A program made the position numbers and the translations under genes. From assembly GCA_005223185.1 (NCBI GenBank), contig NJBN01000002.1:62001-126000 (forward strand): a DNA stretch of 64,000 nt, written 5' to 3'. This document shows, one piece after another, positions 25,327 through 36,072 of this stretch. The number at the start of each line of letters is the position of its first letter. Positions within the stretch are counted from its first letter, which is position 1. The notes beneath the pieces are model-generated. The model saw nothing but the letters and a program-made list of their open reading frames with translations. It ran no database searches and had not been told where the DNA came from. The DNA comes from a candidate division LCP-89 bacterium B3_LCP (GTDB taxonomy: Bacteria > Electryoneota > B3-LCP).

Positions 25327-26490
25327 ATGAATGAAGTAACAGACTTACAGCCGGTCCCAAGGGCTCGTGCTATGCCGCCTTTCAGGGCTATGCAGCTTTT
25401 GGCAGAAGCACGTCGTTTGGAATCCCAGGGACGCGACATCATCCATATGGAGGTAGGTGAACCGGACTTCAAGACGCCCCAACACATCATTGAAGCTGCT
25501 TTTCAGGCCGCAAAGAACGGATTTACTTCCTATACACCGGCGGAAGGTATAGCTGAACTGCGTGAAGCGCTTGCGGACACTTACGAGGCGAGGTACGGCG
25601 TAGAAGTCAACCCTGATCGGTTCATCGTAACGGTAGGTTCCTCCCCCGCGCTCTGGCTGATCTTTTCAGCGATATTGGAACCAGGTGATGTCGTCATGAT
25701 GTGCGATCCTCATTACGCCTGCTATCCGAATGACGTTAGATACATTGGCGGTGAACCTGTCACATTCCCGGTGCGTTCCCAGGATGGTTTCCGTCTTGAC
25801 CCTGGAGAAAGCTGGAGCAAAAATGTGGATCGAGCTAAGGCTTTTCTGGTAAATTCTCCTTCCAATCCCACCGGTGCAGTGGTGGATCATGATGATTGGA
25901 GAGAATTAGCCGAACTGCCTGTGCCCTATATCATCTCAGATGAGATCTATCATGGCATAGAATACGGCGTCAAATCACATTCGGCTCTTGAATATCGACC
26001 GGATGCGTTCGTAGTTTCCGGATTTTCCAAGCTTTACGCCATGACTGGCTGGAGATTGGGTTGGATCATCTGCCCTGAAAATTTCATCGAACCGTTGCGC
26101 CGCATCCATCAAAATCTGTTCCTGTGTGCGTCTTCGTTCGTTCAGAAAGCAGGGATTGCTGCTCTGACGGGACCGCAGGGTGAGATTAAAAAGATGGTCG
26201 AAACATACGATAAGCGCAGAGTTTTTATCGTAGGTGCTTTGCGAGATATGGGGTTTGACGTTCCGGTTGAACCGAAGGGTGCATTCTACATATTAACAGA
26301 TGCGCGTCACTTGGATGAAAATTCAGAGAGGCTTTCACACCGCTTGTTGAATGAAGCCGGCGTGGCGGTCACGCCGGGCATAGACTTCGGTCAGGAAGCG
26401 GAAGGTTTCCTGCGCTTTTCCTATGCCACTTCAATCGAGAGCATAGCAGAAGGAATGAAGCGGATAAAGGGTTGGATTGACTCTCTGTGA
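25327..26490 (+). CDS. Pyridoxal phosphate-dependent aminotransferase, class I/II
   Basis: 'MEVGEPDFKTPQHI', 'NSPSNPTGAV', 'SDEIYHGIEY', 'SGFSKLYAMTGWRLGW'. Confidence 0.92.
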   Translation: MNEVTDLQPVPRARAMPPFRAMQLLAEARRLESQGRDIIHMEVGEPDFKTPQHIIEAAFQAAKNGFTSYTPAEGIAELREALADTYEARYGVEVNPDRFIVTVGSSPALWLIFSAILEPGDVVMMCDPHYACYPNDVRYIGGEPVTFPVRSQDGFRLDPGESWSKNVDRAKAFLVNSPSNPTGAVVDHDDWRELAELPVPYIISDEIYHGIEYGVKSHSALEYRPDAFVVSGFSKLYAMTGWRLGWIICPENFIEPLRRIHQNLFLCASSFVQKAGIAALTGPQGEIKKMVETYDKRRVFIVGALRDMGFDVPVEPKGAFYILTDARHLDENSERLSHRLLNEAGVAVTPGIDFGQEAEGFLRFSYATSIESIAEGMKRIKGWIDSL

Positions 26491-26503
26491 AGATTAGAAA
26501 CGG

Positions 26504-26528
26504 AGTTGTCGGTGCTATACCGGCAACT
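26504..26528 (+). terminator. Hairpin after the aminotransferase gene
   Basis: AGTTGTCGGT-GCTAT-ACCGGCAACT; no strong U-tract follows. Confidence 0.4.
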
Positions 26529-26630
26529 TAGACCCTGTATTTAATTGATCTAACCAGATCATAAATATTAATAGTGTCAGGCTGAACTAAGCCATAAATT
26601 TCTCAAAAAGGGATCGAACACTAAGTAATC

Positions 26631-28307
26631 TTGATCCTTTCACGAAAAGGAGAAATAAGCATGTTAGAAGATTTCCCCAAAACGAAAACCCTTGTAGGAC
26701 AGAAAGCAGATTATAAAATTCTAGAAAGCATAGGCGAAGGTGGGAAAGGTAAAACCTATCTGGCAGAAGTTGTAAATTCTAGGGATTCGTTAGCTATTGG
26801 ATATAAATGCGTTGTCAAAATCCCCAAAATAGAATTTCCAAAATTCACAATACAACAGAATATAGATTGGCTTCAAAAAATTCAGAACTCATTTGCCAAT
26901 GAGCTTAACAGTTTTTATCGTCTTCAAGGCTTAGACTGTGCCGCAGAAATCCTGGATTATGGAGCTATAGAGTTAGACATCGGTGATAAGAAACATCCTG
27001 CGCATTTTCTAGTGCAGCGCCATATAAAAGGTGAACAGCTTGATGAAATATTCCCTAAAAATTTGGGGGGTATTAAAACAGCGAAAGAATACTTTGAATG
27101 GTGTAGAAAATTAACTGAAGCGCTGCTGAAGATTCATCAGAGAGAAGTGATTCACGCTGATATCTGGCCGGCAAATATTATGGTATATAAGGGAGAGATC
27201 GTCTTCATTGACTTTGGTCAAGGTATTCTGAAGGATATTGATTTTATTACAGAAATTGGCGATAGGCGTGGTGATCATTATAATTATGTTGCTCCTGAAC
27301 GCCGAAATCTAAAAATGAGATGGTATGTGGAAGCTGATATTTATTCCTTAGGTGGTATTTTTTATTATCTTGCTACAGGGCAACCTCCACCTATACCCAC
27401 AGAAGATCATGATAAATTGAAGGAAAAGATAACCCGTAACATAAAGAGAATCAACATTGAGCTATATAATGCAAACTCGGGCGTTGTGGACGTTATTGCA
27501 AGATGCCTGCGCTATAAAAACCTGCACAGAACACCACATGCTGAAGGTATTCTACAGGATTTAGATATCTTTACGACAAAAAACGTCAGAAATCGGGATA
27601 AAAAACAAATCGAGATTACAAAGAATATTCCCAAAGAATTGGATACATTGAAGAAACATAATAATGGCCTGTTCTGTTGGATGGCTTACTCTGAAATTAG
27701 CCTCTTCCAGCAGAAATTGGAAAATATGCAGCAGGGAGTTTATGATCTAACTGGGGATTATGATGATATTATTAATGGATTGTGTAGGAATCTCGCAATT
27801 TTAAGTCAAGGTCATAAATACATCACCGTATCAACTCCACAGTTTTGGCATCCGGATAACTTGGGAGTGAATGGACGGTTCCTTACCATGAACAAATTGG
27901 TCGCTCAGCGCGGAGCCTGCATTCAGCGGATATTCCTCGTTACTGATGAGGACGAAGAAAAAGATGAGTACCTGCCTCATATTCTCAGAGCTCATAGGGG
28001 GAAAATTACCGAATTGCGGAAGGAGGGTTTCCAAAATGATGATATCAACAAAGCGGGATTACATGAATGGGTTTACAAGGCTACTATTGAGGAACGTGAA
28101 TTGCTGTTTCGTCGTGGCGGTCATTTTGGATTGTGGAAGAAAAGAGGTCAGTCCATGCTGATTTCACCGGTATACAACGAAAACAGAAGGATTGTAATTA
28201 TCCGATTCCGTTCTAATTCCCCATATAATACTGAAATGAGTAAAATTTTCAAAGGACTACGACAAGGTGCCAAATCGTTAATTAATTACAGGATAAAAAG
28301 TAAATAG
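26631..28307 (+). CDS. Ser/Thr protein kinase-like protein fused to an uncharacterised C-terminal domain
   Basis: 'ILESIGEGGKGKTYLA' Gly loop, 'VIHADIWPANIM' catalytic loop, 'IDFGQG', 'VEADIYSLGGIFYYLATG'. About 230 further residues unassigned. A better start is ATG 26661 (MLEDFPKTKT, SD 'aaggaga'). Confidence 0.75.
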   Translation: MILSRKGEISMLEDFPKTKTLVGQKADYKILESIGEGGKGKTYLAEVVNSRDSLAIGYKCVVKIPKIEFPKFTIQQNIDWLQKIQNSFANELNSFYRLQGLDCAAEILDYGAIELDIGDKKHPAHFLVQRHIKGEQLDEIFPKNLGGIKTAKEYFEWCRKLTEALLKIHQREVIHADIWPANIMVYKGEIVFIDFGQGILKDIDFITEIGDRRGDHYNYVAPERRNLKMRWYVEADIYSLGGIFYYLATGQPPPIPTEDHDKLKEKITRNIKRINIELYNANSGVVDVIARCLRYKNLHRTPHAEGILQDLDIFTTKNVRNRDKKQIEITKNIPKELDTLKKHNNGLFCWMAYSEISLFQQKLENMQQGVYDLTGDYDDIINGLCRNLAILSQGHKYITVSTPQFWHPDNLGVNGRFLTMNKLVAQRGACIQRIFLVTDEDEEKDEYLPHILRAHRGKITELRKEGFQNDDINKAGLHEWVYKATIEERELLFRRGGHFGLWKKRGQSMLISPVYNENRRIVIIRFRSNSPYNTEMSKIFKGLRQGAKSLINYRIKSK

Positions 28308-28446
28308 AACAATAATCAAACCCAAATAACTACAGATATCAGTTAAGGACAGCTTTTGTTTTGAGCTTGGTTGCAGATTGATTCCCATTTTCTATATGGG
28401 CGATAGGATCGAACTAGTTGTTCTAACCTTAGACTTCGGAGGAAAC

Positions 28447-29376
28447 GTGAATCCTGAAGATGAAAAAGGAAAAATCTGGTTTAGCGGCAAATTCGTGGAT
28501 TGGAAGGATGCCAACATCCACGTTATGTCACACGTTATACACTACGGTTCTGCGGTATTTGAAGGTCTTCGCTGTTATGATACGGCAAACGGCCCTGCCA
28601 CTTTTCGGTTAAAGGATCATGTCAACAGGCTATTCGATTCTGCCAAGATCTACCGCATGGAGATACCCTTCACGAGAGATGAGATTTTCGACGCCTGCCA
28701 GGAAACCGTTAAGATAAACAATATGAAGTCCGCGTATGTGCGCCCCATAGCCTTTCGCGGTTATAATACTCTGGGCGTCGATCCCACCGGTATCCCAATT
28801 GAGGTCGTCATCGGCACCATGAGCTGGGGCACATATTTAGGCGAAGAAGCCATCAATGTGGGTGTGGACGTGCGCATATCTTCCTGGACTCGCATCGCGC
28901 CCAATACCTTTCCCGCTATGGCTAAGTGTGGAGCTAACTACATGAATTCTCAGTTGATAAAGATGGAAGCTGCCGTCGATGGCTATATCGAAGGCATCGC
29001 CCTGGACGCCAACGGATATGTGAGTGAAGGCTCCGGAGAAAATATATTCATCATCAAAAATGGTAAAATTTTGACGCCCCCGCTGGGAGCGTCTGTACTG
29101 CCTGGAATCACGCGGAATTGTGTTATCACTCTGGCTGAAGAGATAGGTTACGAAGTAATCGAACAGTTAGTGCCCCGCGAACTGCTGTATATCGCAGATG
29201 AGGTCTTCTTCACCGGTTCTGCTGCTGAAGTCAGCCCTATCAAGAGCATTGACAGAATTCCTATAGGTTCTGGTAAGCGCGGTCCCCTTACCGAAAAACT
29301 GCAGCGACGCTTCTTCGATATCATCGAAGGTAAAGCGGAAGATAAATACGGCTGGTTAACCTACGTGTATAAATAG
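28447..29376 (+). CDS. ilvE: Branched-chain amino acid aminotransferase
   Basis: 'GSAVFEGLRCYDT', 'NYMNSQLIKMEA', 'GYVSEGSGENIFI', 'EVFFTGSAAEVSPI'. GTG 28447 after 'GGAGGAAAC' preferred over 28378. Confidence 0.9.
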   Translation: MNPEDEKGKIWFSGKFVDWKDANIHVMSHVIHYGSAVFEGLRCYDTANGPATFRLKDHVNRLFDSAKIYRMEIPFTRDEIFDACQETVKINNMKSAYVRPIAFRGYNTLGVDPTGIPIEVVIGTMSWGTYLGEEAINVGVDVRISSWTRIAPNTFPAMAKCGANYMNSQLIKMEAAVDGYIEGIALDANGYVSEGSGENIFIIKNGKILTPPLGASVLPGITRNCVITLAEEIGYEVIEQLVPRELLYIADEVFFTGSAAEVSPIKSIDRIPIGSGKRGPLTEKLQRRFFDIIEGKAEDKYGWLTYVYK

Positions 29377-29422
29377 AAGAATAAATCTTTGACAGAGATA
29401 ACCGTTAAGCTTTAAACAGATC

Positions 29423-29899
29423 ATGAATACTCGCAGGGAAGCACGCGAATGGGTAATGCAGGTGCTTTATGCTCGGGAAATCTCCGGTGATCCACTAAAA
29501 CAGATCCGAGCCCAATGGCAACCCCGTAATGCACGGCTTCCCCTGTATAATTTTGCCCTTGACGTTGCCCAAAAAACTGATGAAAGACATGATCAGTTAG
29601 ACAAAATTATCATCGAATATGCTGACAAGTGGGAGCTGGAAAGGATCGCTATTCTGGATAGAATCATCCTCCGCATGGCGATTTGTGAAATTCTCCATTT
29701 CGATGATATTCCGCCCAAAGTAACTATCAACGAAGCTATCGAAATCGCCAAAAAGTACTCCACGGAAAAGAGCGATAAGTTCATCAACGGCATTTTAGAT
29801 GCCGTCCTGCATCGGCACGACAGTGAAGGTGAACCTAAAAGCAAATCGAAAGTCATTAAGGAGAAACAGGGGAAAAAGACAGCATCGCGGGGTGGTTGA
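29423..29899 (+). CDS. nusB: Transcription antitermination factor NusB
   Basis: 'REAREWVMQVLYA', 'ILDRIILRMAICEILHFDDIPPKVTINEAIEIAKKYSTEKSDKFINGILD'. Confidence 0.93.
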   Translation: MNTRREAREWVMQVLYAREISGDPLKQIRAQWQPRNARLPLYNFALDVAQKTDERHDQLDKIIIEYADKWELERIAILDRIILRMAICEILHFDDIPPKVTINEAIEIAKKYSTEKSDKFINGILDAVLHRHDSEGEPKSKSKVIKEKQGKKTASRGG

Positions 29900-30598
29900 T
29901 TGAAGTTAGCGCTTATTTCTGACATTCACAGTAATTTGGAAGCTCTGACTGCAGCATTAGAAGCGGTTGAACGATTTAAGCCGGATGAGCTGATCTGCCT
30001 GGGTGATATAGTCGGGTATGGTGCTGATCCAGGTGAATGTATCGAACTGGTTCGGAATCATACATCCAGAGTAATCATGGGAAACCATGACGCTGCTGTT
30101 GCGAATCTCCTGCAGCCTGAAAATAATTTCAACGATTACGCGCTTACGGCTATCCATTGGACCCGATCCGTATTATCCGACGACCACAGGGACTATCTTA
30201 AAACTCTTCCACTTGAGATACTGTTCGATGACCTTCATTTAGTGCATGGAACCCCCGGAAATCCGGGGTCGTTTGATTATGTGCTCACAACCTACGACGC
30301 TGAAGTTCAATTTACGAATATCAAGGGCAGCAACTGCTTTATAGGTCACACTCACCGCCCTGGCATCTATATGGAAAGAGACCCAGTTGACAAGACCCAG
30401 CCAAAACGCATCATAAACATTGGCAGCGTAGGGCAACCCCGCGATGGAGATCCACGCCTCTGCTTCGCCCTGTATGAAACCAAAACCGAAGAGGTGGAGT
30501 TCATTCGGGTGGAATATGACATCGAAACCGCCGCCACCAAGATCCGCACTGCCGGTTTACCGGCACTTCTGGCGGAGAGGTTGGGGAGAGGGGGGTGA
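29900..30598 (+). CDS. Metallophosphoesterase/phosphodiesterase (YfcE/MJ0936-like)
   Basis: 'ALISDIHSNLEAL', 'CLGDIVGYGADP', 'MGNHDAA', 'LVHGTPG', 'FIGHTHRP'; TTG start overlapping the nusB end. Confidence 0.9.
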   Translation: MKLALISDIHSNLEALTAALEAVERFKPDELICLGDIVGYGADPGECIELVRNHTSRVIMGNHDAAVANLLQPENNFNDYALTAIHWTRSVLSDDHRDYLKTLPLEILFDDLHLVHGTPGNPGSFDYVLTTYDAEVQFTNIKGSNCFIGHTHRPGIYMERDPVDKTQPKRIINIGSVGQPRDGDPRLCFALYETKTEEVEFIRVEYDIETAATKIRTAGLPALLAERLGRGG

Positions 30599-30655
30599 GG
30601 GGAAAGTCGAAGCCACAGAAATCTCCAATGAATCACTAATAGGACGGAGAAGAAA

Positions 30656-31939
30656 ATGTTAGTGAATAAAATCAAGTTCAACAATTTTAGAAGTTTTAAG
30701 GATATAGATGTCGACCTTGGTAACTTCAATGTACTAATAGGGGCAAACGCGTCAGGGAAATCAAATTTCATTCAGGCCTTTAAATTTTTAAGAGATATTA
30801 AGGACTTTGGACTTGAAAATGCTATATCTATGCAAGGAGGTATCAAATACTTAAGGAATATTAGAATAGGCAATACAGGAGATTTATCGGTTGAGATTCA
30901 ATTTGATGGTGTTTTCAGCCATATTAATAAAGATAGCAATGGTGGTTATACCGCTGTGAAATTTACTGATTCAGCCTACACATTTACAATGCGATTTCAC
31001 AAGAAAGGTGAGGGTTTTACTATCGTCAAAGATAAACTTGAGCAGAACTGCGAATGGTATGAGATTGAGAAACCTTTTAAAACGGTTTATGAAATATCTA
31101 AAGGGAAAACTCTTTGGAATGGAAAATTTATCAATGAAGTCTTTGGACCAAGAAGAAATAGAAGGGTGTTCTCTACATTCGATCCTAGAACGGAGGACAT
31201 CGAAAGCAAACTTGATATGATGTTACCCCGATCCGTTGAAACCTACGAATTTAAAGAAAGGGAACTTATGTGGGAGCATCGATTCAGCTATAATATTATA
31301 CCACCTCTTGCGCTTTTTATTGAGTATACTGCAATTTATGATTTTGATCCAAAGCTCCCCAAAAAGGCTGTACCAATCACTGGTAAGGCGGAATTGGAAG
31401 AAGATGGCAGCAATTTAGCGTTAGTTCTCAAGAATATAATTAAGGATAAGGAACAAAAAAGAAGGTTCTTAAACTTAATCCAAGATCTTTTGCCGTTTAT
31501 TGATGATCTTGGTATAAGCAAATTTGCAGATAAATCTCATATATTTAAGTTAAGAGAAAAGTACTTCAAGGACCAATATCTTCCTGCATCGCTAATCTCA
31601 GACGGTACAATAAATCTAACAGCGCTGATTATTGCTCTTTATTTTGAGAAAAAGGATTTTATTATAATAGAAGAGCCGGAAAGAAATGTGCATCCAGCAT
31701 TAATTTCCAATATGATTGAAATGATGAAAGACGCATCTGAGAAGAAACAGATAATTGTAACTACTCACAATCCTGAAGTTGTGAGACATGCAGGATTGGA
31801 GAACCTATTATTTGTCTCCAGGGATTCTGACGGTTTCTCTGAAATAAAAAGGCTTCATGAAAGAGAGGAAATAAAGACATTTTTAAAGCATGAAATTGGC
31901 GTAGAAGATTTGTATATATTAGATCTATTGGAGGGCTAA
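30656..31939 (+). CDS. AAA_21-type ATP-binding protein (RecF/SMC/OLD-like ATPase)
   Basis: Walker A 'GANASGKSNFIQAF', signature 'SLISDGTINLTALIIAL', Walker B 'FIIIEEPERNVHP', H-loop 'VTTHNPEVVRH'. Confidence 0.88.
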   Translation: MLVNKIKFNNFRSFKDIDVDLGNFNVLIGANASGKSNFIQAFKFLRDIKDFGLENAISMQGGIKYLRNIRIGNTGDLSVEIQFDGVFSHINKDSNGGYTAVKFTDSAYTFTMRFHKKGEGFTIVKDKLEQNCEWYEIEKPFKTVYEISKGKTLWNGKFINEVFGPRRNRRVFSTFDPRTEDIESKLDMMLPRSVETYEFKERELMWEHRFSYNIIPPLALFIEYTAIYDFDPKLPKKAVPITGKAELEEDGSNLALVLKNIIKDKEQKRRFLNLIQDLLPFIDDLGISKFADKSHIFKLREKYFKDQYLPASLISDGTINLTALIIALYFEKKDFIIIEEPERNVHPALISNMIEMMKDASEKKQIIVTTHNPEVVRHAGLENLLFVSRDSDGFSEIKRLHEREEIKTFLKHEIGVEDLYILDLLEG

Positions 31940-32464
31940 ATGCAACACAAAAATCTCTGGGTGTGGGTAGAGGGAAATGACGATGCTCGTCTATTTAAAG
32001 AAAGAATAAAACCGATTTTCGATCAACGGTATTCGAGAGTTCGTATTCGGACGTATAGACACCTAAATAAAAAATTAATGTGTAAATTAATATCAGTAGC
32101 TAATGAAGAGAATGCTGATTATTTTCTCGTTGCTGATATAAATTCCGCCCCTTGCCCTTCTGCTAAAAAGAGCGAAGTAAGAAAAGTTTATTCAGATTTA
32201 GAAGACGAAAATATTATTGTAGTGATCCGTGAAATAGAAGGTTGGTATTTAGCTGGATTAGGTAATGATAGTTGCAGATCATTAGGGATAGAAACTTTTA
32301 ATAATACTGACCAAATTGGGAAGGGGAAATTTAAGGAATTAATGCCAACGAAATACGATTCTCGTGTGGATTACATGAGTGAAATTTTAAAACACTGGAA
32401 TATTAGAGTGGCACTTAAGAAGAATAGTTCATTTTCCTACTTCGCAAAAAAATACAATCTCTAA
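31940..32464 (+). CDS. Small Toprim/DUF4276-like protein partnered with the ATPase
   Basis: 'VWVEGNDDARLFKERI', 'YFLVADINSAPC', 'VVIREIEGWYLAGLG' resemble Toprim-like acidic motifs. The start follows the ATPase stop directly. Confidence 0.6.
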   Translation: MQHKNLWVWVEGNDDARLFKERIKPIFDQRYSRVRIRTYRHLNKKLMCKLISVANEENADYFLVADINSAPCPSAKKSEVRKVYSDLEDENIIVVIREIEGWYLAGLGNDSCRSLGIETFNNTDQIGKGKFKELMPTKYDSRVDYMSEILKHWNIRVALKKNSSFSYFAKKYNL

Positions 32465-32510
32465 ATAAGGTGAAGTCCCAACTTACAAACAGGTTACCAG
32501 AATTTAATAA

Positions 32511-35474
32511 ATGCCCAACTTCCTAAATAAATTCTTCGGAACTAAATCCGACCGTGAAGTCAAAAAGCTGCAGCACGCAGTAGGTGAGATCAACGGATTC
32601 TTTGAAGAGTACGAATCCTTGAACGATGACCAACTGCGCGCCAAGACGGATGAGTTTAAATCCCGCCTGCAGGACGGTGAAACCGTTGACGATCTCCTGC
32701 CGGAAGCCTTCGCTGCGGTTAAGTCCGCCTGCAAGCGGCTCGTGGGCAAATCCTGGGAAGCGGGGGGAGCTAAAATTACCTGGGATATGATCCCCTACGA
32801 CGTCCAGTTGATAGGAGGTGTCGTTCTACACCAGGGCAGAATCGCGGAGATGGCTACAGGTGAGGGAAAAACGCTCGTTGCCACCATGCCGCTCTATCTG
32901 AATGCTCTGGAAGGCGAGGGCTCTCACCTGATTACCGTCAACGATTATTTAGCCAGACGCGACGCCGAATGGATGGGCGGAATCTACGAAATGCTGGGAA
33001 TGACTGTGGGTATCAACCTGGCGCACATGCCCTACGCCGAACGCTATGCCGCTTACCGAGCCGACATAACCTACGGCACCAATAACGAATTCGGCTTCGA
33101 TTACCTGCGCGATAATATGTCAGTCAGCGTAGAAGGCGTCGTACAGCGCAAACATCATTACGCCATCGTTGACGAAGTTGATTCCGTCCTGATAGACGAA
33201 GCGCGCACCCCCCTGATTATATCCGGACCCGTTTCCCGCAGCACCCACAAGTTCGATGAATTAAAAGGACACATCCAGAAATTGGTCAGAAAGCAGAATG
33301 ATCTGGCTAATAAACTGATAGCGGATGCCGAAAAGCTCTTTGCTGAAGAGACCAACGATGCCGAATACGAAGCCGGAACAAAAATACTGCTGGCTCACCG
33401 CGCTGCTCCGAAAAATAAACGCCTGCTTAAACTCATGCAGGAAACAGGCACCAGAAAGCTGCGCACGCGCGTAGAAAACGATTACCTGCGCGATAAGCGC
33501 ATGCCCGAAATTGATGAACAACTATATTTCGTCATCGATGAGCATCATCACACCATTGACTTGACCGAGATGGGTCGAGATGAATTAGCGCATTCCACGC
33601 GGTCGGATGCCTCCATGTTTATACTGCCTGACATGGCTGAAGAACAGGTGCGCATCGATAATCTGGAAGTGGATGAGGAAACCAAACTGGAGATGCGCCA
33701 GAAAGCCGAAGACCTGTTTTTAGACCGCAGTGAGAGAAACCACAATATCGGTCAGCTTCTGCGAGCTCACATGCTCTATGAATCCGATATTGAATACGTC
33801 ATAGAAGACGGCGCGCGCATCGTTATTGTGGATGAATTCACCGGTCGTTTGCAGTATGGCAGGCGTTATTCCGATGGTCTGCACCAGGCTATCGAAGCCA
33901 AAGAAGGGGTGAAGATAGAGCGGGAGACCCAGACCATTGCTACGGTAACCCTGCAGAACTATTTCCGCCTTTACGATAAATTGGCTGGAATGACCGGTAC
34001 TGCTGAGACCGAGGAGCAGGAATTCTACGACATATACAAACTTGACGTGGTGGTTGCGCCTACCAACCAGACTGTCATCCGCAAGGACATCGATGATGTT
34101 ATCTACAAGACGAGAAAGGAAAAATACGAGGCAATTCTAAGCGAAGTAGAAGACTGCTATCACAATAAACAACCCATTTTAGTAGGTACTACCAACGTTG
34201 AAGTTTCAGAAACCTTAGCCCGTCTGCTCAAACGGCGCAAGATTCCGCATGAAGTCTTAAACGCCAAGCATCACGCACGTGAAGCTGAGATCATCACCAG
34301 GGCAGGGCAGCCAGGATCAGTAACGATAGCCACAAACATGGCTGGCCGTGGTACTGACATTAAACTCGGAAAGGGTGTAGTTGAAGTTGGCGGATTGCAG
34401 ATACTGGGCACTGAACGTCACGAATCCAGACGTATAGACCGCCAGCTTCGCGGCCGTTCCGGTCGTCAGGGCGATCCCGGTGTCAGCAAGTTTTTCCTCT
34501 CGCTGGAAGATGATCTGATGCGTCTCTTCGGATCTGAAAGGATCGCCGGCATTATGGATAGATTGGGTGTCAAGGAGGGTGAAGTTATCACCCATCCCAT
34601 GATCACCAAATCGATTGAGAAAGCCCAGAAACGCGTGGAAGCCCAGAACTTCGCCATACGTAAACATTTGCTGGAATATGATGACGTCATGAACCGGCAG
34701 CGCGAGGTGATTTACGAACGTCGCCGCCGCGTTCTGTTCGGTGAAGACATCGAAGATCTAGTTCTGGAGATGATGAACGAATGGATTGAAGATCTCTTCC
34801 TGAATAACACCGAAGAAGATGCTCCCATGCACGAATGGAATCTGGATGATCTGCAGAGGTCCCTGGGGAGCATTGCCCGCATCTTCTTCCAATCCGATGC
34901 GGAAGAATGGACGTCTTTGGGTCGTGATGAAGTAATGGATAGGATAAAGCAGGAAGGACGGGATAGCTTCGAGAGACGCAAAGGGGAGATTGACTCTGAA
35001 CTGCTGCCTAACTTCCTGCAGGGAACGATCCTGGCGTTCATAGATGAAGAATGGAAGGATCATTTATACGAGATGGATCGTATGAAAGAGGGAGTGGGTT
35101 TACGCGCTTACGGTCAACGAGACCCACTGGTGGAATATAAACGTGAAGGTTTCGAACTCTTCGGAGAGATGCTCAACCGTGTCAATGAGAAGGCTTTACG
35201 CAGCATATTTCAGAGCAAAATCTTGAGTTCAATCAAACCTGCCGAAAGCGTTACCGAGGAACAGATGACTGCGGTTCATCGGCAGGCGGCGGGTATGGCT
35301 TATGCTCATGCCCAGACTCCTCAGGAGGATGTACGAGCTCCTGCTGCTCGTGCACAAACTCAAGGTCAGGAACCAGGCAAACAGCAGCCTATTCGCAAGG
35401 GAAAAGCGCCCGGGCGTAACGATCCCTGTCCCTGTGGCAGTGGTAAAAAATACAAGCATTGTCACGGTGGCTGA
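32511..35474 (+). CDS. secA: Preprotein translocase ATPase SecA
   Basis: 'MATGEGKTLVATMPLYLNAL', 'VDEVDSVLIDEARTPLIISGP', C-terminal zinc motif 'GRNDPCPCGSGKKYKHCHGG'. Confidence 0.96.
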   Translation: MPNFLNKFFGTKSDREVKKLQHAVGEINGFFEEYESLNDDQLRAKTDEFKSRLQDGETVDDLLPEAFAAVKSACKRLVGKSWEAGGAKITWDMIPYDVQLIGGVVLHQGRIAEMATGEGKTLVATMPLYLNALEGEGSHLITVNDYLARRDAEWMGGIYEMLGMTVGINLAHMPYAERYAAYRADITYGTNNEFGFDYLRDNMSVSVEGVVQRKHHYAIVDEVDSVLIDEARTPLIISGPVSRSTHKFDELKGHIQKLVRKQNDLANKLIADAEKLFAEETNDAEYEAGTKILLAHRAAPKNKRLLKLMQETGTRKLRTRVENDYLRDKRMPEIDEQLYFVIDEHHHTIDLTEMGRDELAHSTRSDASMFILPDMAEEQVRIDNLEVDEETKLEMRQKAEDLFLDRSERNHNIGQLLRAHMLYESDIEYVIEDGARIVIVDEFTGRLQYGRRYSDGLHQAIEAKEGVKIERETQTIATVTLQNYFRLYDKLAGMTGTAETEEQEFYDIYKLDVVVAPTNQTVIRKDIDDVIYKTRKEKYEAILSEVEDCYHNKQPILVGTTNVEVSETLARLLKRRKIPHEVLNAKHHAREAEIITRAGQPGSVTIATNMAGRGTDIKLGKGVVEVGGLQILGTERHESRRIDRQLRGRSGRQGDPGVSKFFLSLEDDLMRLFGSERIAGIMDRLGVKEGEVITHPMITKSIEKAQKRVEAQNFAIRKHLLEYDDVMNRQREVIYERRRRVLFGEDIEDLVLEMMNEWIEDLFLNNTEEDAPMHEWNLDDLQRSLGSIARIFFQSDAEEWTSLGRDEVMDRIKQEGRDSFERRKGEIDSELLPNFLQGTILAFIDEEWKDHLYEMDRMKEGVGLRAYGQRDPLVEYKREGFELFGEMLNRVNEKALRSIFQSKILSSIKPAESVTEEQMTAVHRQAAGMAYAHAQTPQEDVRAPAARAQTQGQEPGKQQPIRKGKAPGRNDPCPCGSGKKYKHCHGG

Positions 35475-35568
35475 TCTTCACCGGTTGAGAATTAAAAAAA
35501 AGTATTTCTTTAGGGAGAAAATTTTATTATATTAAATAAGGGGAACAAATTGGGGGGAGAAATAACGC

Positions 35569-36072
35569 TTGCAGAACTACGAGGCCCCCGTGTATAATAG
35601 AATAATGGAAATCCTGGTCCTTCTTATGGACGAATTCGGTGATGACAAATGGCAGTTTGATCACATGGACCAGGTAAGTGAGGATTTAATTCAGAGAGGA
35701 TATACTGAACAGGAAATAAATACTGCTTTTTACTGGCTTTATAATCGTTTCGGCTGGGAAGACGCAACTCCTCCATATTCGCTTCATATCGACGATGCGA
35801 CAGGTTCATCCTACCGTGTGCTTCATCCACAAGAACAGAGGTTGATAACGCCTGAATCATACGGGTTCTTGTTGCAGCTCAGTTACCTGAAGTTAATCTC
35901 CCCCAGGGATATTGAAGAGGTGATAGAACGCGTCGCTATGCTGGACCTCAAATCCGCCACAGTCGATGAAATAAAGCCCATAATACAATCCATCCTTTTT
36001 GAAGAAAACAACATGTGGGGGAACAAGTATAAAGGCTTGAATCTCTCTCAAAAAGGTGAAACCTATCATTAA
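35569..36072 (+). CDS. Smg/DUF494 family protein
   Basis: 'MEILVLLMDEF' N-terminus and 'EEVIERVAMLD' typical of Smg; located before topA. Confidence 0.8.
   Translation: MQNYEAPVYNRIMEILVLLMDEFGDDKWQFDHMDQVSEDLIQRGYTEQEINTAFYWLYNRFGWEDATPPYSLHIDDATGSSYRVLHPQEQRLITPESYGFLLQLSYLKLISPRDIEEVIERVAMLDLKSATVDEIKPIIQSILFEENNMWGNKYKGLNLSQKGETYH

What the first reader, a model, noticed from the sequence alone, without database searches (positions are those of the whole stretch)
30656..32464. AAA_21 ATPase + Toprim-like two-gene cassette: candidate anti-phage system
The ATPase has Walker A, signature, Walker B and 'TTHNPEV' motifs. The adjacent 174-aa protein has 'VEGNDDARLF', 'VADINSAP' and 'EIEGWYLAGL', resembling DUF4276/RloB-like Toprim proteins. 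Known defence modules of this design include AbiL, PARIS (AriA/AriB) and OLD/Gabija-type systems. The AT-rich pair sits between a phosphodiesterase gene and secA, like a small insertion in core genes. The effector is short and has DxN rather than DxD, so it may be a new variant.
Basis: partly seen in the sequence, partly recalled or inferred. Interest (0 to 1): 0.62.

Follow-up and report, generated by a model that had tools for sequence, protein, structure and literature searches.

The report
Split OLD-type ATPase–Toprim nuclease pair
Two adjacent genes encode an ATP-binding sensor and a small nucleic-acid-cutting partner, the design of known anti-virus modules; here they look like a recent insertion, but in one family of methane-making archaea the same pair is inherited like an ordinary housekeeping gene, so its job may not be only defence.

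Summary
In detail: A (30656-31939, 427 aa, OLD/RecF-type ABC ATPase) and B (31940-32464, 174 aa) are intact and abut with no gap. B is a Toprim nuclease by model: pLDDT 95, top PDB matches are OLD Toprim domains, although every match is weak (none at E<=0.001), and the full OLD two-metal residue set aligns (E11, D15, D66, N/D68, E98, E100, K128). The A-B order is kept in 78 of 80 related loci across many bacterial and archaeal phyla. PADLOC files A as HEC-01A (1e-51); B matches HEC-01B weakly. It is thus a split OLD-type sensor-effector module, like PARIS but not a PARIS member. In the window it is a horizontally acquired, AT-rich insertion: three relatives have an empty PDE-secA site, and B occurs in 4 of 39 genomes of the phylum. 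"DxN" is not unusual: 31 of 62 homologues have N and 31 have D. Unexpectedly, in Methanoregulaceae the pair is core-like: 75 of 108 genomes, always one copy, fixed gene order, strong purifying selection; ordinary OLD Toprims occur in 11 of those 108. That fits a housekeeping role at least as well as classical defence. Anti-phage activity is plausible for the window copy, but untested.

The parts
30656..31939 (+). gene A: OLD/RecF/SMC-like ABC ATPase, 427 aa (predicted sensor/regulator)
   Evidence: Pfam AAA_21 7.6e-32, AAA_15 2.7e-22; PADLOC HEC-01A 1e-51
30740..30763 (+). Walker A GANASGKS (G29, N31, G34, K35 invariant in 56 homologues)
   Evidence: sequence
31592..31609 (+). ABC signature-like LISDGT (S315, G317 invariant)
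   Evidence: sequence
31658..31681 (+). Walker B FIIIEEPE (E339, E340, P341 invariant)
   Evidence: sequence
31760..31777 (+). switch motif TTHNPE (T369, T370, H371, E374 at least 90% conserved)
   Evidence: sequence
31940..32464 (+). gene B: Toprim nuclease-like effector, 174 aa; start codon directly follows the stop of A, in frame
   Evidence: AlphaFold2 pLDDT 95.1; Foldseek top hits are OLD Toprim domains
31970..31984 (+). Toprim motif 1: E11 (62/62) and D15 (61/62), aligned with BpOLD E400 and E404
   Evidence: BpOLD residues from PMC6755086
32135..32143 (+). Toprim DxD/DxN motif: D66 (62/62), residue 68 N in 31 and D in 31, aligned with BpOLD D455 and D457
32231..32257 (+). E98-I-E100-G-W-Y-L-A-G: E100 (62/62) and E98 (61/62), spaced like the metal B residues T506 and E508 of BpOLD
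32321..32323 (+). invariant K128 (62/62), candidate counterpart of the catalytic lysine K562 of BpOLD
   Evidence: counterpart inferred from order and conservation, not from superposed coordinates

Best explanation
A and B form a two-gene split OLD-type module: an ABC ATPase (A) that senses and regulates, and a short Toprim nuclease (B) that acts as effector. Most likely A oligomerises through its ATP-binding heads, holds B inactive, and on meeting a trigger (a phage product or an abnormal nucleic-acid structure) activates or releases B, which cuts nucleic acid (DNA as in OLD/GajA, or tRNA as in PARIS AriB) with two metal ions held by E11/D15/D66/N68/E98/E100, helped by K128. In the window genome it is a horizontally acquired accessory cassette inserted between core genes, most likely serving anti-phage or anti-mobile-element defence. 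Shown by computation: gene pairing, predicted fold, conserved catalytic set, insertion, patchy presence in the phylum. Inferred: complex formation, trigger, substrate and defence.
For: Pairing in 78 of 80 loci with gaps from short overlap to a few bases in nearly all; A and B distances co-vary, r about 0.95. B model pLDDT 95.1; its best PDB matches are OLD Toprim domains (6nk8 E 1.6e-3 prob 1.0; 6njv; 6p74). B relatives match HEC-01B 62/62, mad4 33, AriB 28, DUF4276 34, OLD-like_TOPRIM 30. Catalytic residues match BpOLD in order and, for motif 1, the DxD and the E-x-E pair, in spacing. A-stop-B read as one chain: best PDB hits TsOLD (2e-17), GajA, retron Eco8 OLD. Insertion: nusB-PDE-secA-DUF494-topA order without the pair in G001, G004, G005; GC 0.34-0.35 against 0.50; the tree mixes phyla and both domains of life around the window copy. 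A nearby slot of the same operon holds a Tsp45I-like restriction-modification pair in G001, a HepT-like toxin in G005, and a kinase resembling PD-T4-6 in the window.
Against: No activity data exist. B itself reaches PADLOC only at 3.5e-5 to 1e-4 over about half of the models, and no single Foldseek match of B passes 1e-3. Overall TM of the joined model to OLD is about 0.3, so the domain arrangement differs from, or is not comparable with, fused OLD. In Methanoregulaceae the family behaves as core. No match in phages, plasmids or viral contigs. Convincing defence neighbours are few in other genomes (no background rate measured).
Confidence: 0.6

Rival explanations
1. Housekeeping genome-maintenance or cell-cycle nuclease: the pair is a split relative of OLD ATPase-nucleases that serves DNA repair, replication or chromosome segregation, as reported for the archaeal OLD protein Cran1, and bacterial copies are transfers of that function.
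For: In Methanoregulaceae 75 of 108 genomes carry exactly one copy, against 98 of 108 for ribosomal protein S8 and 11 of 108 for ordinary OLD Toprim domains; conserved flanking genes in about 20 Methanolinea-type and 6-7 Methanoregula-type loci; distances follow flanking core genes with r 0.88-0.95 for three of four neighbours, dN/dS 0.05-0.16 there. In Planctomycetota it sits between lptB and def-fmt-rsmB-dnaA. Cran1 showed no antiviral effect and is needed for cell-cycle progression (PMC12796447).
Against: In the window's phylum it is patchy and inserted; 11 of 148 in a planctomycete order; 2 intact and 2 truncated of 14 in Halanaerobiaceae; cross-domain mixing in the tree. Low dN/dS and long residence do not exclude defence.
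Confidence: 0.28
2. Addiction or toxin-antitoxin-like selfish pair: B is a toxic nuclease held in check by A and the pair persists by post-segregational killing without a defence benefit.
For: Tight two-gene unit with absent or tiny gap; AriB-like effectors are restrained by their ATPase (PARIS literature).
Against: No plasmid or phage copies found; one copy per genome in all matched genomes; B without A exists in L090, so it is not always toxic alone; stable vertical inheritance in methanogens.
Confidence: 0.1
3. Catalytically weakened or regulatory B: the DxN change in this copy abolishes cleavage and B works as a binding or structural subunit.
For: N at position 68 in 31 of 62 homologues, mostly bacterial copies, while all 14 Methanomicrobiales have D.
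Against: All other catalytic positions are conserved; in BpOLD the second aspartate contacts metal A only through waters and single mutants kept activity (PMC6755086).
Confidence: 0.06

Closest known systems
PADLOC HEC-01 (Hma-embedded candidate 01)
   Same: Two adjacent genes, ATPase and Toprim-like protein; A matches HEC-01A over its full length at 1e-51; all 62 B relatives match a HEC-01B model
   Different: The window B matches only weakly and over half of the model; no Hma genes nearby; no paper held here describes what HEC-01 does
PARIS (AriA/AriB; 'class 4' OLD)
   Same: Split OLD ATPase plus Toprim nuclease in adjacent genes; 28 of 62 B relatives match AriB; solved AriA found by A at 4.6e-5
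   Different: The window B does not match AriB; similarity is remote; the family is common in archaea, whereas class 4 was reported only from bacteria (PMC12796447)
OLD nucleases class 1/2 (TsOLD, BpOLD, GajA) and retron Eco8 OLD
   Same: ABC ATPase followed by Toprim; same catalytic set; best structural matches of the joined chain
   Different: Two genes rather than one; B is short, with 28 instead of 54 residues between the metal B glutamate and the lysine; no UvrD helicase or reverse transcriptase alongside
MADS mad3/mad4
   Same: A matches mad3 at 1.5e-35, B relatives match mad4 in 33 of 62
   Different: No other mad genes adjacent; the pair stands alone
AbiL (AbiLi/AbiLii)
   Same: AbiLi model matches A at 4.8e-32
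   Different: AbiLii matches only 3 of 62 B relatives weakly, and not the window B
Cran1 (class 5 archaeal OLD)
   Same: OLD ATPase-nuclease kept vertically in an archaeal lineage, with a reported non-defence role
   Different: Single fused protein in Sulfolobales; no direct sequence comparison was made here

Membership tests
Toprim nuclease domain (OLD type) | Toprim fold with conserved E and DxD | tested here: met
   Model pLDDT 95.1, OLD Toprim domains as top PDB hits, weak E-values; E11 and D66 in 62/62, position 68 D or N
Toprim nuclease domain (OLD type) | Metal B residues and catalytic lysine (BpOLD E404, T506, E508, K562) | tested here: met
   D15, E98, E100, K128 conserved in 61-62 of 62 at corresponding places in the sequence order; correspondence not checked on superposed coordinates
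OLD ABC ATPase | Walker A, ABC signature, Walker B, H-motif in an OLD/SMC-like head | tested here: met
PADLOC HEC-01 | HEC-01A ATPase | tested here: met
   1e-51, residues 1-427 to 1-367 of 371
PADLOC HEC-01 | HEC-01B partner adjacent | tested here: inconclusive
   Window B 1.1e-4 over half of PDLC04194; relatives 62/62 to PDLC04191, best 2.4e-11
PARIS | ATPase and Toprim encoded separately by adjacent genes | tested here: met
PARIS | Effector matches AriB (DUF4435-type) | tested here: not met
   Window B has no AriB or DUF4435 match; relatives 28/62 and 12/62, weak
PARIS | Triggered by phage Ocr; AriB cleaves tRNA | not testable with these tools
   Needs experiment
Gabija | UvrD-like helicase next to the ATPase-nuclease | tested here: not met
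   Neighbours are PDE and secA; no helicase among the recurrent neighbours in relatives
Retron with OLD effector | Reverse transcriptase and ncRNA alongside | tested here: not met
   No RT gene next to the pair; no Rfam match in 26000-36000
MADS | mad1-mad8 gene set around mad3/mad4 | tested here: not met
   Only the two genes lie between PDE and secA
DUF4276 | Pfam PF14103 match | tested here: not met
   No match for window B; 34 of 62 relatives weak, best 4.6e-8
Anti-phage defence system | Protects against phage | not testable with these tools
   Needs plaque assays
Mobile/accessory defence gene | Patchy, insertional presence among relatives | tested here: met
   Window phylum: 4/39 genomes, empty sites in G001, G004, G005. 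Not so in Methanoregulaceae

The most novel reading that the evidence does not exclude
A split OLD-type ATPase-Toprim module has been taken over as a single-copy, vertically inherited genome-guarding or cell-cycle nuclease in Methanoregulaceae (DxD form), while sister copies (mostly DxN form) spread horizontally between bacteria and archaea, so one gene pair spans the line between mobile immunity and core physiology.
Probability: 0.28. Interest if true: 0.6.

Novelty: new variant of a known kind. Interest (0 to 1): 0.42.

Why it matters
OLD-type ATPase-Toprim modules are treated almost wholly as immune systems. A split pair that is accessory in many bacteria yet core-like in a methanogen family gives a natural test of whether such modules also serve ordinary cell functions, and of how immune and core genes exchange. 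It also defines a compact B subfamily with a clear set of residues to mutate.

Tried and rejected
Single-sequence searches of B in Pfam, NCBIfam, PHROGs and PDB gave nothing useful, as did the B profile against PDB. B in viral contigs, plasmids and phages: none. B model against viral structures: nothing below 1e-3; a phage RloB-like protein was second at 0.033. Rfam and tRNA scans: none, so no tRNA-borne island and no retron RNA. Literature searches for HEC-01 and DUF4276 found no description. 'DxN marks a new variant' rejected: half of the homologues have it. 'Shared nusB/PDE context with Planctomycetota' looked striking, but the maps show different loci (PDE beyond lptB; the nusB-like hit is the N-terminal part of rsmB), so it is not the same insertion site. 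PADLOC scan of 124 flanking genes from 38 loci gave a minority of defence hits and has no background rate, so it was left as inconclusive. PADLOC 'AriA' hits of A rest partly on models with the lengths of the general AAA_21/AAA_15 profiles and were not taken as PARIS evidence.

Full report
Observation. Gene A (30656-31939, 427 aa) and gene B (31940-32464, 174 aa) are intact on the + strand and B's ATG follows A's TAA without a gap. They lie between a calcineurin-like phosphoesterase and secA. GC is 0.347 and 0.341, third-position GC 0.33 and 0.29, against 0.50-0.51 and 0.51-0.55 in the flanking genes.

Gene A. Pfam AAA_21 7.6e-32 and AAA_15 2.7e-22; PADLOC HEC-01A 1e-51 over the full length; NCBIfam MAD3 5.6e-40 but far below its cut-off. 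Solved relatives found by sequence are GajA, TsOLD, PtuA, SMC/Rad50 heads and AriA. The motifs are conserved in 56 homologues. It is an OLD/SMC-like ABC ATPase.

Gene B. No curated family is reached. Searching 62 homologues one by one, all match HEC-01B, 33 match mad4, 28 AriB, 34 DUF4276, 30 OLD-like_TOPRIM, 12 DUF4435, 1 RloB, all weakly. AlphaFold2 gives pLDDT 95.1 and pTM 0.87. The first three PDB matches are OLD Toprim domains (E 1.6e-3 to 5.3e-3, probability 0.97-1.0); none passes 1e-3, so the fold assignment rests on this together with the residues and the family matches. BpOLD uses E400, D455, D457 for metal A, E404, T506, E508 for metal B and K562 (PMC6755086). B has E11, D66, N/D68, D15, E98, E100 and K128, each but position 68 in 61-62 of 62 sequences; the spacings E+4, D+2 and x+2-E agree. 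BpOLD D457 contacts metal A through waters, so N68 need not abolish catalysis. Position 68 is N in 31 and D in 31; all 14 Methanomicrobiales have D.

The pair. In 80 loci from 178 relatives, A is directly upstream of B in 78; exceptions are L072 (short B near CRISPR-like genes, by eye) and L090 (no A). A and B distances correlate at 0.94-0.96. Reading through the stop as one chain (A-S-B, an artificial joining made to use a single-chain predictor) gives pLDDT 93.6, pTM 0.89 and best PDB hits TsOLD, GajA and retron Eco8 OLD, in the order ATPase-Toprim. Overall TM is about 0.3, so domain placement is not shown to be OLD-like, and the joining itself may have shaped it.

Genomic behaviour in the window's lineage. 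B occurs in 4 of 39 genomes of the phylum. In G001, G004 and G005 the order nusB-PDE-secA-DUF494-topA is intact without the pair; in G003 the contig ends after PDE. The window copy is less like its own family's other copies (36-41% identity) than like some from distant phyla (44-46%), although tree support around it is low. The best reading is a horizontal insertion.

Genomic behaviour elsewhere. In Methanoregulaceae 75 of 108 genomes have B, each once; RpsH is found in 98 of 108, ordinary OLD Toprims in 11 of 108. Two fixed gene neighbourhoods recur there. Three of four flanking core genes co-diverge with A and B at r 0.88-0.95 (the fourth, an ABC exporter, 0.23, perhaps mixing paralogues), and dN/dS is 0.05-0.16. 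In the whole order it is 98 of 232, again one copy each. By contrast: 11 of 148 in a planctomycete order, 2 intact plus 2 truncated of 14 Halanaerobiaceae. So the family is accessory in most lineages and core-like in one.

Mechanism. Most likely A senses and restrains, B cuts with two metal ions. In PARIS, AriA detects a phage trigger and AriB cleaves tRNA; in GajA/OLD the Toprim cuts DNA. The substrate of B cannot be told from sequence. Defence is favoured for the window copy because it is an insertion and because a slot three genes upstream in the same operon carries a Tsp45I-like restriction pair in G001, a HepT-like protein in G005 and a PD-T4-6-like kinase in the window. Housekeeping is favoured by the methanogen pattern and by the precedent of Cran1, an archaeal OLD protein without detected antiviral effect that is needed for cell-cycle progression (PMC12796447).

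Verdict. The pair is a HEC-01-like split OLD module, a new variant of a known kind, with an unexpected core-like branch in methanogens.

Noticed in passing
26631-28307: AT-rich gene (GC 0.384) for a Ser/Thr protein kinase (Pkinase 1.2e-19) between an aminotransferase and ilvE; PADLOC PD-T4-6 4.9e-27 and mad6 1.9e-21. Kinase models match broadly, so a defence role is only a lead.
   Followed up: partly
L016:10557-12384; L018:3131-3535: The same slot upstream of ilvE holds a Tsp45I-like restriction-modification pair in G001 and a HepT-like RNase in G005: a possible insertion hotspot for defence genes.
   Followed up: partly
L013:739-4039; L014:6357-9589: In two other genera of the window's family the pair is followed, with a 4-base overlap, by a peptidase C69 gene (Pfam 2.1e-51 for the L014 copy): a conserved three-gene unit in a different locus.
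   Followed up: no
L026, L036, L040, L049, L092: In Planctomycetota the pair sits by def-fmt-rsmB-dnaA, downstream of lptB where the contig reaches that far: a stable place among core genes.
   Followed up: partly
G313:C1:15325-15573; G316:C347:8292-8540; G130:C1:604057-604251: Truncated B remnants (C-terminal half or less) in Halanaerobiaceae and Methanoregulaceae genomes, suggesting loss by decay.
   Followed up: no
PADLOC models PDLC04143 and PDLC04144: The labels HEC-01A and HEC-01B look swapped for these two models: PDLC04143 'HEC-01A' matches the Toprim protein and PDLC04144 'HEC-01B' the ATPase.
   Followed up: no
L080:11837-12997: A second gene with an OLD/SMC-like ATPase N-terminus lies near the pair in Methanocalculus; no B-like partner was seen next to it.
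   Followed up: no
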